Source: Kiritimatiellia bacterium (lineage in GTDB: Bacteria; Verrucomicrobiota; Kiritimatiellia; RFP12; UBA1067). From it: DNA of 42,420 bases. The stretch lies in the NCBI GenBank assembly GCA_017650345.1, contig JAGCFB010000006.1:1-42420 (forward strand), written 5' to 3'. Shown here in pieces: positions 113 to 2,133 of the stretch; positions within the stretch are counted from its first letter, which is position 1, and every line of letters begins with the position of its first letter. The notes beneath the pieces were generated by a model. The model was not told the origin of the DNA and ran no database searches. It saw only the letters and a program-made list of their open reading frames with translations. The translations under genes were made by a program, and so were the position numbers.

Positions 113-142
113 ATTCCAAGAAAAAGGTCTTTTTCTTGGAAT
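113..142. terminator. Perfect 13-bp hairpin, likely bidirectional terminator
   Basis: ATTCCAAGAAAAA (113-125), a GGTC loop (126-129) and TTTTTCTTGGAAT (130-142) form a perfect 13-bp stem. On both strands the stem ends next to an A/T-rich run, so it could end transcription of the radC-like gene on the plus strand. The stem is AT-rich, unlike a classical GC-rich intrinsic terminator, so a protein-binding palindrome is also possible. Confidence 0.55.
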
Positions 143-356: not shown

Positions 357-1529
357 ATGGCGAAGAAGTTGGAGAAAGAGTTTGATCTGGTAAATTCAAT
401 CATAGAGCGTCGGTGGGAACGGGCGATAGGACTCGCCAATGCCGAGGCTCTGATGAGTTACTGGAGCGTGGGCGCTTTCGTTTCCGCACGCTTGAAGACT
501 GCAGCGTGGGGATCGAAGACGGTGGAGGAGCTCTCGGATTATCTCAAGACGCGCAATCCAAAACGGCGAGGTTTCGGCAAGCGGCAGATATACAACATGG
601 TGGCGTTCTTTGATGCTTATACGTCACTGGATTTCCAGAAGATATCTGAACGGTTGCGGCTTCACGAATTTGTGCAGTTGCCAACTGCACAAATTGAGAA
701 CGGTACAATTGTGCAATTGCCAATTGCACAAAGTGGTAAGGGTGAAATTGTGCAGTTGCCAACTGCACAATTAGATCATAGTGACGATTATTGCGCAGAT
801 TTTCCGTTGTTTTTATCGCTTACGACGTTCACAAATCACATTGAGATACTGAATCACGTCAGTTCGATTGAAGAACGGGTGTTCTATGTCCTTTATGCGG
901 CGAGGGAACGGTTGAATCAGATGGAACTGCGAAGGGCCTTTGCTGCGCAGACGTATGACATGATCATGAGCAAGGAGAAGAAAATGTCCGCCCGATTGAG
1001 GGCGGCATATCCCAAGGCGGATTTTGTGCTTAAGGACAAGGCCTTTCTCGACTTCTTAAATCTGCCTAAGAAACACACGGAACATGTACTGCATAGAAAG
1101 CTTGTGGAACACATGAAGGACTTTATTCTTGAGATGGGCAAGGACTTCCTTTACATGGGGGATGAATATTTTGTACATGTCGGTGGGGAGATACGCCGTC
1201 TTGACTTGCTGTTTTATCACAGGGGGTTGAGGTGCCTTGTTGATGTCGAACTCAAGGCAGTGGGATTCCAGCCTGAGTTCGTCAGCAAGCTAGACATGTA
1301 TCTAGAGGCGATCGACAGGGAAATCCGTCGCGAGGGAGAGAATCCCTCTGTTGGCATAATTCTTTGCCCAGATGCGGATAGATGCCGAGTTGAATATACG
1401 CTTTGCCGCACTATGAGTCCTGTAATGGTAGCCGAATACAGGCGGTTGCTTGTGCCAGAAGAGGTGATGAAGAAATCACTAGAAGAATACTGCGAATTCA
1501 TGAAGTGCGAGGAAGGCAAGGGGAAATGA
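357..1529 (+). CDS. DUF1016/YhcG-family PDDEXK nuclease
   Basis: The product has 390 residues. The N-terminal part (about 5-100) matches the DUF1016 helical domain: residues 31-80 carry ALMSYWSVGAFVSARL and then GFGKRQIYNMVAF. The C-terminal part (about 225-350) is the PDDEXK nuclease fold, with D283 in RLDLLFYH and the E298-x-K300 pair in VELK. Related proteins are associated with mobile DNA and restriction or defence loci; the substrate is unknown. I chose ATG 357 because it follows a GAGGAG site and the promoter; an in-frame TTG at 303 would start upstream of the promoter. Residues 105-141, between the two domains, are a three-fold 13-residue repeat (VQLPTAQ-type) encoded by large palindromes. 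Base composition is lower in GC than the genes after 2150, suggesting horizontal acquisition. Confidence 0.85.
   Translation: MAKKLEKEFDLVNSIIERRWERAIGLANAEALMSYWSVGAFVSARLKTAAWGSKTVEELSDYLKTRNPKRRGFGKRQIYNMVAFFDAYTSLDFQKISERLRLHEFVQLPTAQIENGTIVQLPIAQSGKGEIVQLPTAQLDHSDDYCADFPLFLSLTTFTNHIEILNHVSSIEERVFYVLYAARERLNQMELRRAFAAQTYDMIMSKEKKMSARLRAAYPKADFVLKDKAFLDFLNLPKKHTEHVLHRKLVEHMKDFILEMGKDFLYMGDEYFVHVGGEIRRLDLLFYHRGLRCLVDVELKAVGFQPEFVSKLDMYLEAIDREIRREGENPSVGIILCPDADRCRVEYTLCRTMSPVMVAEYRRLLVPEEVMKKSLEEYCEFMKCEEGKGK
667..772 (+). repeat. Three phased palindromes inside the DUF1016 coding sequence
   Basis: Three palindromes of the type TTGTGCAGTTG-C-CAACTGCACAA are centred at 681, 720 and 759, exactly 39 nt (13 codons) apart. 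Perfect arms are 14 nt (667-695), 11 nt (709-731) and 13 nt (746-772). In the middle copy a G:C pair of the stem is replaced by A:T on both arms (716 and 724), so the palindrome is kept although one change is synonymous (Gln) and the other replaces Thr by Ile. They encode the linker between the two nuclease domains. Confidence 0.9.
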
Positions 1530-1577
1530 CGGTAGGCTGGAGGAAGGATAGAAGATCCCATTGGTGGAGTAGAGACT

Positions 1578-1751
1578 ATGGCGATGCCGCAGAGAGACGA
1601 TCCTCCTTCGCGCTGCGCGCTACGGAGGACAGGTACGATTGAGGCGATCAAGCGACTTGATTTGTTGCTAGAGTATGCCGTCATGCATGGGGACGAGGAA
1701 GAGGCCGAGCGCATCCGCGCGGAGCTTCATAAGTTGACGGACGAGGTTTGA
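1578..1751 (+). CDS. Small acidic helical protein, second copy with in-frame 11-aa insertion
   Basis: The ORF runs from ATG 1578 to TGA 1749-1751 and encodes 57 residues. It matches the 46-residue protein at 166-306 (D-L-L-L-E-Y-A-V-M-H-G-D core) except for a 33-nt insertion at 1602-1634, which adds PPSRCALRRTG after residue 8 and keeps the frame. Only three substitutions separate the rest, so this copy still looks functional while the nuclease behind it is dead. The function is unknown. The insertion lies close to the N-terminus, before the predicted helix. Confidence 0.5.
   Translation: MAMPQRDDPPSRCALRRTGTIEAIKRLDLLLEYAVMHGDEEEAERIRAELHKLTDEV
1602..1634 (+). repeat. Short palindromic element inserted in frame in a small gene
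   Basis: These 33 nt are absent from the first gene copy. They begin CCTCCTTCGCGCTGCGCGC, and the outer CCTCC pairs with GGAGG (1624-1628) around an alternating GC core. A close relative is at 2101-2133. The size, palindromic form and in-frame placement resemble REP or Rickettsia palindromic elements. Confidence 0.7.
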
Positions 1752-1771
1752 CGGCTGGGCGGCGGATGTTA

Positions 1772-1780
1772 TGGTATAAT
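1772..1780 (+). promoter_or_regulatory. Duplicated extended -10 promoter of the dead DUF1016 copy
   Basis: TGG-TATAAT and the following leader through GAGGAGAAACA are identical to 327-356. The promoter therefore appears intact although the gene it drives has premature stops. Confidence 0.65.
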
Positions 1781-1801
1781 CTTAAACAAAGAGGAGAAAC
1801 A

Positions 1802-2080
1802 ATGGCGAAGAAGTTGGAGAAAGAGATTGAACTGGTAAATCGCATAATCGAGCGGCACTGAAACAGGGCCGTCGGTTTTGCCAATGCCGAATCGTTGATG
1901 ATTTACTGGACTGTCGGCGCGTTCGTGTCGGAGCGGCTCAAGAAAGCGCAGTAGGGTTCAAAAACGGTAGAGGCCCTTTGCGATTACTTGAAGATGCGCA
2001 ATCCCAAGCGCAAGGGGTATGGGAAACGCAATGTCTACAACATGGTGGAATTTTACGATGCATACTCCAGCCTTAGATGA
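1802..2080 (+). pseudogene. DUF1016 nuclease, decayed and truncated second copy
   Basis: From ATG 1802 the sequence follows the N-terminal domain of the 357-1529 protein for about 92 codons (KKLEKEIELVNRIIERH, then GAFVSERLKKAQ and GYGKRNVYNMVEFYDAY). It is interrupted by TGA at 1859-1861 and TAG at 1952-1954 and ends at TGA 2078-2080, with the linker and nuclease domain missing. Both internal stops replace tryptophan codons (TGG) of the intact copy, each by a G-to-A change. The gene cannot make a working nuclease. It is the remnant of a duplicated unit of small gene, promoter and nuclease. Confidence 0.85.
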
Positions 2081-2100
2081 GAAAGTTTTTTACATCCTTT

Positions 2101-2133
2101 CCTCCTTCGCACTGCGCGCGGAGGCGGGACGGA
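2101..2133 (+). repeat. Second copy of the short palindromic element, upstream of pgpA
   Basis: CCTCCTTCGC-A-CTGCGCGC followed by GGAGG-C-GGGAC matches the element at 1602-1634 with a few substitutions and a 3-nt difference in the loop. It ends immediately before the extended -10 box of pgpA (2136). If read in the pgpA frame it gives PPSHCARRRDG, close to the PPSRCALRRTG of the other copy. Confidence 0.6.

What the first reader, a model, noticed from the sequence alone, without database searches (positions are those of the whole stretch)
667..772. Covarying palindromes built into the linker of a DUF1016 nuclease gene
Three palindromes with arms of 14, 11 and 13 nt are spaced by exactly 39 nt inside one ORF. 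In the middle copy the stem keeps a Watson-Crick pair although both arms changed (G:C to A:T), one change being silent and the other Thr to Ile. Selection or a templated repair process must therefore act on the DNA or RNA structure and not only on the protein. They could be recognition sites for the encoded nuclease, hairpins controlling translation, or remnants of repeated template switching. I know of no description of this for the family.
Basis: partly seen in the sequence, partly recalled or inferred. Interest (0 to 1): 0.78.

Follow-up and report, generated by a model that had tools for sequence, protein, structure and literature searches.

The report
Nuclease gene carrying its own binding site
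The palindromes are real and are not peculiar to this gene: nearly every gene of this widespread bacterial nuclease family (including yhcG of laboratory E. coli) carries one at the same place in its coding sequence, and its letters change in step with the DNA-reading helix of the protein the gene makes, so the protein very probably binds its own gene.

Summary
In 192 DUF1016 genes from many bacterial phyla, archaea and phages, plus 84 independent test genes, 168 and 70 have a strong palindrome whose centre is the first base of a codon, just upstream of the W-x-H motif; neighbouring genes do not. E. coli K-12 yhcG has three, also 39 nt apart. Arm sequences differ widely yet stay paired, through synonymous and amino-acid-changing double changes; G-T pairs are not tolerated, so the constraint is on DNA, not RNA. 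The half-site bases covary with residues 2, 5 and 6 of a predicted helix-turn-helix recognition helix of the encoded protein (Arg-Gua, Asn/Gln/Tyr-Ade); rules fixed beforehand held on 69 unseen proteins (p down to 6e-11) and in sister pairs. Profile alignment relates the N-domain to ParB/Noc DNA-binding domains. Best reading: the nuclease recognises a palindrome inside its own gene; autoregulation is the likeliest use (inferred). RNA hairpin, mobile-element and protein-only readings are disfavoured. I found no description of this in the papers I could search.

The parts
357..1529 (+). DUF1016/YhcG gene, 390 aa: N-terminal DNA-binding domain (DUF1016_N), disordered linker with the palindromes, C-terminal PD-(D/E)XK nuclease
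   Evidence: Pfam PF17761 1.4e-17 and PF06250 1.6e-46; PADLOC PDC-S02 5.7e-95
579..617 (+). codons 75-87: predicted recognition helix of helix-turn-helix 1 (GFGKRQIYNM...), with Arg76, Tyr79, Asn80 at the positions that covary with the half-site
   Evidence: AlphaFold model; covarying columns N61, N64, N65; the window obeys the code: R76-G at d7, N80-A at d5, Y79-G at d9
667..695 (.). palindrome 1 AATTTGTGCAGTTG-C-CAACTGCACAAATT, predicted binding site of the encoded protein, codes EFVQLPTAQI
709..731 (.). palindrome 2 TTGTGCAATTG-C-CAATTGCACAA, with the paired G:C to A:T change at distance 4 from the centre, codes IVQLPIAQ
746..772 (.). palindrome 3 AATTGTGCAGTTG-C-CAACTGCACAATT, codes EIVQLPTAQL
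663..800 (+). linker (about codons 103-148) in which the palindromes lie; predicted disordered (pLDDT 45-65), so the DNA can be shaped with little cost to the protein
828..839 (+). codons 158-161 (F-T-N-H), equivalent of the W-G-H motif; residue 159 equals column C3, which covaries with the inner half-site (d3, d4) and aligns with the Gly-His motif of ParB
867..944 (+). codons 171-196: second predicted helix-turn-helix (helices 171-184, 188-196); the family residue at its start (column C32) covaries with d3
1026..1463 (+). PD-(D/E)XK nuclease domain with invariant Asp283 and Lys300
1802..2086 (+). degraded second copy of the gene, N-terminal part only (2 TGA, 1 TAG); the stretch that would hold the palindromes is deleted
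   Evidence: sequence

Best explanation
DUF1016/YhcG proteins are two-domain DNA-binding nucleases whose own recognition site, a 19-27 bp palindrome, is built into their coding sequence between the segments that code for the two helix-turn-helix motifs. Step 1 (shown by comparative sequence evidence): the dyad symmetry of the DNA is maintained while the letters change. Step 2 (shown by covariation, not by a binding assay): the letters are read by the encoded protein; residues 2, 5 and 6 of recognition helix 1 read the outer half-site (d5-d9 from the centre), the W-x-H residue and the second helix-turn-helix read the inner half-site (d2-d4), in the manner of ParB/Noc proteins on parS/NBS. Step 3 (inferred): a dimer bound to one, or to several sites 39 nt apart, inside its own gene blocks or limits its own transcription, so that a horizontally moving nuclease carries its operator with it, and specificity and site cannot be separated by recombination. 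Step 4 (inferred): the nuclease acts on other DNA when needed (candidate anti-phage gene, PADLOC PDC-S02). My confidence is about 0.93 in steps 1-2 and about 0.6 in step 3.
For: Universality: 168 of 192 genes have a palindrome of score 8 or more in phase 0; best centre in phase 0 in 181 of 192; score of 10 or more in 69% of DUF1016 genes versus 3.2% of 528 neighbouring ORFs; synonymous-permutation null mean 6.1. Centre defined from the protein motif alone: mean score 6.9 at shift 0 and 0.5-2.1 at every other shift. DNA-level pairing: at four-fold degenerate codon positions the base that pairs with the other arm is 2.4-5.5 times enriched and all others depleted; G opposite T 0.19 and T opposite G 0.09. 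First bases of codons -1/+1 are complementary in 225 of 233 genes, with all four pair types (C-G 122, A-T 51, G-C 38, T-A 14), i.e. amino acids change in pairs. Recognition code: top of 2360 residue-base pairs are R61-d7 (z 10.4), Y65-d5 (9.5), K64-d9 (8.4), all on one helix face; R61 with G7 in 92 of 92. Prospective test on 69 unseen proteins: R61-G7 24/26 vs 6/43 (6e-11), R65-C5 11/13 vs 4/56 (5e-8), Y/N/Q/F/L65-A5 43/46 vs 4/23 (2e-10), E/D64-C8 12/13 vs 2/56 (1e-10), W64-C9 10/10 (3e-6). Sister pairs on a nuclease-domain tree: residue-61 changes go with base-7 changes in 15 of 24 pairs, never the wrong way, versus 7 of 90 without residue change; residue 64 E/D with base 8 in 10 of 10. E. 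coli: two yhcG allele classes are almost identical except about codons 80-137, exactly recognition helix plus palindromes. ParB/Noc relation: hhalign E 3e-5, W-x-H on the Gly-His of ParB; VIA-align Z 7.5-6.9 to Noc and ParB DNA-binding domains; the same regions set ParB/Noc specificity, outer versus inner base in the same order (PMC7383237). Autoregulation: in L207, L259, L277 and L332 another copy of the gene's own site lies in the first codons, and in L315 and L317 a perfect copy lies upstream of the start; other genes' half-sites give about 0.1-0.3 such close hits; no clear excess elsewhere in the flanks.
Against: No binding, cleavage or expression assay exists or could be run. Most genes have no recognisable copy of their site at the promoter, only inside the gene about 250-400 nt from the start, an unusual place for an operator. 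Pure autoregulation does not by itself explain why specificity has diversified so far; a test for orthogonality between co-resident paralogues was inconclusive (0 of 77 pairs share a site, 1.6 expected). About 12% of genes have a weak or decayed palindrome. The structural match to ParB/Noc is moderate (Z about 7 for a helical domain; Foldseek alone did not list it; the window's own model did not list it).
Confidence: 0.72

Rival explanations
1. Self-directed nuclease: the in-gene palindrome is the address at which the nuclease acts, for example cutting its own gene or an incoming copy of the same allele (exclusion, gene conversion, or a fail-safe), not an operator.
For: The protein joins a site-reading domain to an intact PD-(D/E)XK nuclease. 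Nuclease relatives include Holliday-junction resolvases and EndoMS/NucS. Specificity is diverse, as in systems under frequency-dependent selection. The palindrome stretch shows deletions and junctions: O157:H7 yhcG lost palindromes 2 and 3, other E. coli alleles carry foreign DNA right after palindrome 3, and the second copy in the window lost that stretch.
Against: A site-specific nuclease cutting its own intact gene would be suicidal without a protective device; no methylase is consistently adjacent (N6_Mtase in 6 of 96 neighbours). Extra copies at the 5' end of the gene fit an operator better.
Confidence: 0.17
2. Mutational self-maintenance: template switching or quasi-palindrome correction keeps an old palindrome perfect, without any binding function.
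For: Paired changes on both arms and near-perfect symmetry are what quasi-palindrome correction produces.
Against: It predicts no link with residues of the protein coded some 20 codons upstream, yet that link is the strongest signal. It would act on palindromes in any gene, but neighbours lack them (3.2% vs 69%), and it cannot explain one fixed position and codon phase across bacteria and archaea.
Confidence: 0.04
3. RNA hairpin in the mRNA (translation pausing, autogenous RNA binding, or RNA cleavage by the protein).
For: The sense strand could form hairpins; centre positions d1 are less constrained, as in a 3-nt loop.
Against: G-U-type pairs are as depleted as other mismatches (0.19, 0.09), whereas an RNA stem should tolerate them. 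The bases follow an Arg-Gua / Asn-Ade type code of a DNA-reading helix-turn-helix. In L315 and L317 a copy lies upstream of the likely start.
Confidence: 0.03
4. Inserted palindromic mobile elements, like the Rickettsia palindromic elements that enter genes in frame.
For: Short palindromes in frame inside coding sequence, in variable copy number; such elements are described for Rickettsia (cited in PMC4316617).
Against: Not dispersed: the core occurs only in this gene in the host genome, and own-site copies elsewhere in flanks show no clear excess. Always at one aligned place in one family, with sequence that follows the host protein.
Confidence: 0.02
5. Protein-only selection for a repeated linker peptide (I-V-Q-x-x-x-A-Q) that happens to be palindromic in DNA.
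For: The peptide recurs with a 13-residue period in the window and in E. coli.
Against: Synonymous-codon permutation destroys the palindromes (P about 2e-4 or below in the window; null 6.1 vs median 11); four-fold sites are fixed by the partner arm; very different peptides (PILAALLREL, TIVHSVNAQL, AICYTLCSKL) all keep it.
Confidence: 0.01

Closest known systems
ParB-parS and Noc-NBS (ParB/Noc DNA-binding domains)
   Same: Related helical DNA-binding domain (profile match, structural match); a homodimer-type palindrome is read by the recognition helix (outer bases) and by the Gly-His residue (inner bases); specificity diversified by changes in those same regions (PMC7383237). From memory, not checked in a paper: one B. 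subtilis parS lies inside the spo0J (parB) gene.
   Different: DUF1016 has no recognised ParB/Srx CTPase domain, carries a PD-(D/E)XK nuclease instead, and its site is in its own ORF at one fixed place as a family rule, with specificity far more diverse.
DUF1016 / YhcG family (PF17761 + PF06250, COG4804; PADLOC candidate defence gene PDC-S02)
   Same: The gene is a full member; Kosinski 2005 predicted the PD-(D/E)XK domain next to YraN-like resolvases (PMC1189080).
   Different: Neither the palindrome nor the DNA-binding specificity of the N-domain is described in the papers found and read.
Autoregulators with an operator inside their own coding region (for example E. coli PurR; from memory, not checked)
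   Same: A DNA-binding protein with a cognate site inside its own gene.
   Different: There the main operator is at the promoter and the in-gene one is an isolated case; here the in-gene site is the family-wide one and co-evolves with the protein.
Rickettsia palindromic elements
   Same: In-frame palindromes inside coding genes.
   Different: Those are selfish, dispersed and unrelated to the host gene's function; these are not dispersed and follow the host protein.

Membership tests
DUF1016/YhcG (PF17761 + PF06250) | both Pfam domains above curated cut-off | tested here: met
   64.5 bits (cut-off 32.8) and 158.4 bits (cut-off 32.5)
PD-(D/E)XK nuclease | restriction-endonuclease-like core fold with D ... 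(D/E)xK motif | tested here: met
   Asp283 and Lys300 invariant in the family alignment, E298-L-K300 in the sequence; model matches EndoMS/NucS and Hjc, Z 8.5-9.5. Activity not testable here.
ParB/Noc DNA-binding domain | homologous helix-turn-helix domain | tested here: met
   hhalign E 3.2e-5, probability 73%, residues 72-128 on the ParB domain; VIA-align Z 7.5 (7nfu), 7.0 (7bnk), 6.9 (6y93), residues 26-147. Moderate strength.
ParB/Noc protein family | N-terminal ParB/Srx CTP-binding domain | tested here: not met
   Pfam finds only DUF1016_N and YhcG_C; so not a ParB, though it reads DNA like one
ParB/Noc protein family | palindromic site read by recognition helix (outer base) and Gly-His residue (inner base) | tested here: met
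   covariation of columns N61/N64/N65 with d5-d9 and of C3 with d3-d4; compared with PMC7383237
Autoregulated DNA-binding protein | cognate site at its own gene | tested here: met
   in-gene site in nearly all members; extra 5' or upstream copies in six genes
Autoregulated DNA-binding protein | binding changes expression of its own gene | not testable with these tools
   needs an expression assay
Rickettsia-type palindromic elements | same element dispersed in unrelated genes of the genome | tested here: not met
   only 3 copies, all in this gene; no clear excess outside the gene in 0.56 Mb of flanks
mRNA hairpin element | G-U pairs tolerated in the stem | tested here: not met
   G-T pairs as depleted as other mismatches at four-fold sites
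Anti-phage defence gene (PDC-S02) | protects against phage | not testable with these tools
   PADLOC model match 5.7e-95 only; some members lie next to restriction-modification or CRISPR genes

The most novel reading that the evidence does not exclude
A categorically new arrangement, a self-addressed nuclease: across bacteria, archaea and phages one gene family embeds, in the coding DNA between its two DNA-reading motifs, the very palindrome that those motifs read, so that site and reader form one inseparable, freely diversifying cassette; and this in-gene site is the address through which the nuclease works (allele-specific exclusion, gene conversion or self-control), not merely an operator.
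Probability: 0.25. Interest if true: 0.95.

Novelty: new variant of a known kind. Interest (0 to 1): 0.88.

Why it matters
A very common gene of unknown function (present in most E. coli genomes, in many phyla, on plasmids and phages, and listed as a candidate defence gene) gets a concrete, testable job: its protein should bind a stated palindrome in its own gene, with a readable amino-acid-to-base code. It shows a coding sequence written under two codes at once, and a specificity module in which reader and site move together, which makes the evolution of protein-DNA specificity visible in many natural pairs. It can be tested at once in E. coli K-12, whose yhcG has three such sites.

Tried and rejected
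RNA hairpin: rejected on the G-T versus other mismatch test. Mobile palindromic element: rejected, since the core is unique to this gene in its genome and own-site copies elsewhere in flanks are at or near control levels. Protein-only repeat: rejected by synonymous permutation. The cruciform idea (nuclease domain near Holliday-junction resolvases) was considered; it explains symmetry but not the residue-base code. A first covariation run lost the N-terminal domain because the profile search split the genes at the linker; redone with separate N and C alignments. Orthogonality of paralogues within a genome: inconclusive. Search of the E. coli K-12 genome for further sites was not possible. A scan of viral contigs for the half-site pattern mostly returned chance matches outside DUF1016 genes. 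No solved structure of the family. Foldseek alone did not list ParB/Noc for the N-domain. The genome search could not be centred on other phyla, so the independent test genes come from the window's own phylum, though from divergent subfamilies.

Full report
1. Observation. The three palindromes are present as described, in frame, in a 390-codon DUF1016/YhcG gene at 357-1529. All three centres are the first base of a CCA (Pro) codon. The middle copy differs by a paired change, CAG/ACT to CAA/ATT, one silent and one Thr to Ile. No shuffled window gave a match. Permuting synonymous codons leaves 20 of the 38 pairs on average and never more than 30 in 5000 trials. In the host metagenome-assembled genome the core is found only here.

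2. It is a family-wide feature. Two homologues with about 70% identity carry palindromes of other sequence at the same place, and so do distant ones. In 78 genes of the same phylum and then in 192 genes including 80 loci from named organisms over many bacterial phyla and archaea and 35 viral contigs, the best palindrome of the gene has its centre on the first codon base in 181 of 192. It reaches score 10 in 69% (3.2% of 528 neighbouring ORFs; many of those may be false ORFs), and sits in compact genes at residue 81 of the domain, just before the (P/S)W-x-H motif. In genes with a longer linker there are two to six, most often 39 nt apart. E. coli K-12 MG1655 yhcG has three at codons 105, 118 and 131, again 39 nt apart.

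3. The constraint is on DNA. Taking the centre from the protein motif alone, positions d2-d12 are complementary in 55-76% of genes (expected from column composition 34-59%), and little or nothing is left beyond d13. At four-fold degenerate codon positions inside the palindrome, the base complementary to the fixed base in the other arm is 2.4-5.5 times over-represented and the rest are depleted; G opposite T (0.19) and T opposite G (0.09) are no better than other mismatches, which argues against RNA pairing (palindromes were picked by Watson-Crick score, which biases against all mismatches alike). The first bases of the codons flanking the centre are complementary in 225 of 233 genes with all four pair types, so amino acids also change in pairs: Gln/Val, Thr/Ser, Leu/Thr, Ala/Leu and others.

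4. Who reads it. Across 160 genes the half-site (d9 to d2) was compared with every alignable residue outside the palindrome. The three highest of 2360 residue-base pairs, after average-product correction, are residues at positions i, i+3, i+4 of the motif G-F-S-x-R61-N-L-K64-Y65: R61-d7, Y65-d5 and K64-d9. The tables have the chemistry of a helix-turn-helix: Arg61 goes with G7 in 92 of 92; Arg65 with C5, i.e. G on the other strand, in 37 of 42; Tyr, Asn or Gln65 with A5 in 91 of 93; Trp64 with C9 in 17 of 18; Gly64 with T9 in 16 of 16. The next best pairs are the residue in W-x-H and the first residue of a second helix-turn-helix, with the inner bases d2-d4. The residues concerned are coded outside the palindrome, so the link is not a coding artefact.

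5. Independent test. Rules taken were applied to new genes fetched afterwards. Of 84 proteins less than 80% identical to any used before, 78 had the best palindrome in phase 0 and 70 scored 8 or more; 69 could be aligned, many from a clearly divergent subfamily. R61-G7 held in 24 of 26 (6 of 43 others), R65-C5 11 of 13 (4 of 56), Tyr/Asn/Gln/Phe/Leu65-A5 43 of 46 (4 of 23), Glu/Asp64-C8 12 of 13 (2 of 56), Trp64-C9 10 of 10 (13 of 59), Lys64-G9 13 of 19 (13 of 50). On a tree of the nuclease domain alone, 114 disjoint pairs of relatives show that the base changes when the residue changes: residue 61, 15 of 24 consistent and none opposite, versus 7 of 90 when the residue is unchanged; residue 64 (Glu/Asp) 10 of 10 versus 7 of 104. 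Shared ancestry therefore does not explain the code.

6. E. coli as a natural experiment. Two classes of yhcG alleles are about 87-100% identical over most 30-nt blocks and fall to 20-77% only in about codons 80-137, the stretch that holds recognition helix and palindromes. GFSTRNLWQFK goes with AATTGTGCAGACACTGTCTGCACAATT; GFSAKNLRQMR goes with AATTCGCCAGACAGTGTCTGGCGAATT, both perfect palindromes, in line with the code for Arg61 (G7), Gln65 (A5 in both) and Arg64 (G8).

7. Structure and kinship. AlphaFold places residues 76, 79 and 80 (columns 61, 64, 65) at positions 2, 5 and 6 of helix 75-87, in both a compact relative and the window protein, where the palindromic linker is disordered. A profile comparison aligns the N-domain with the ParB DNA-binding domain (E 3e-5 in a single comparison, W-x-H on the Gly-His of ParB). 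VIA-align gives Noc and ParB DNA-binding domains at Z 6.9-7.5, a level that alone would not be convincing for a helical domain. In ParB/Noc the residues that set specificity are in the corresponding recognition helix (outer base) and at the Gly-His motif (inner base) (PMC7383237). No ParB CTPase domain is found, so this is not a ParB but reads DNA like one. The C-terminal domain matches EndoMS/NucS and Holliday-junction resolvases, as Kosinski 2005 predicted (PMC1189080).

8. What it is for. The only partner common to all these genomes is the protein itself. Own-site copies outside the linker are rare but placed tellingly: in the first codons of the gene in L207, L259, L277 and L332, and upstream of the likely start in L315 and L317 (the L279 copy is a remnant of another DUF1016 gene). 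That favours control of its own transcription, which I put at about 0.6. A self-directed nuclease or exclusion of identical alleles is the main rival. Some neighbours are type I and other restriction-modification, CRISPR and partition genes, as expected for mobile or defence islands.

9. Literature. Ten held papers mention DUF1016 and eight mention YhcG with nuclease; those read do not describe an in-gene palindrome or a DNA code. Only open-access papers could be searched.

10. Limits. All evidence is comparative. The best-scoring palindrome per gene was used where there are several. Base numbering d counts from the centre base on the coding strand. About 12% of genes have a weaker, decayed palindrome.

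Noticed in passing
window 1571-2125: Directly downstream lies a duplicated, decayed copy of the small upstream ORF (about 166-306) and of the DUF1016 gene (1802-2086, three in-frame stops); the stretch with the palindromes is deleted between AGCCTTAG and ATGAGAAAG.
   Followed up: partly
window 1600-1632 and 2098-2125: Two copies of a short GC-rich inverted-repeat-like element (TCCTCCTTCGCxCTGCGCGC...GGAGG) lie in and after the decayed copy, the second at the broken end of the pseudogene.
   Followed up: no
window 113-142: Inverted repeat ATTCCAAGAAAAAGGTCTTTTTCTTGGAAT (arms 14, 2-nt loop), terminator-like, upstream of the small ORF.
   Followed up: no
L229, L236 (E. coli O157:H7 AC-5 and CAU16175), yhcG: An 80-nt deletion removes palindromes 2 and 3 and shifts the frame, so yhcG is a pseudogene there; palindrome 1 stays perfect.
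   Followed up: partly
L227, L233 (E. coli), about 1900-2310: In some E. coli foreign DNA with a gene annotated 'transposase' starts directly at the end of palindrome 3 and replaces the nuclease half of yhcG.
   Followed up: partly
L050 2311-2333, L100 2210-2232, L153 2167-2189 and relatives: An unrelated phage protein family carries the near-palindromic consensus site TTGTGCAGCARCCTGTTGCACAA in frame in a linker (RIVQQPVAQ); several viral contigs also have the site in a DNA polymerase gene (L041, L083), and L139 has a perfect one between genes.
   Followed up: partly
L180 3111-3571: A run of seven further related palindromes (AATTTCGCCGCAACCTGCGGCGAAATT and others) lies about 130 nt beyond the DUF1016 frame, perhaps in a second family member.
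   Followed up: no
G396, G361, G247, G063: Some genomes of the phylum hold 5 to 9 DUF1016 genes; 77 within-genome pairs examined never share a half-site (1.6 expected).
   Followed up: partly
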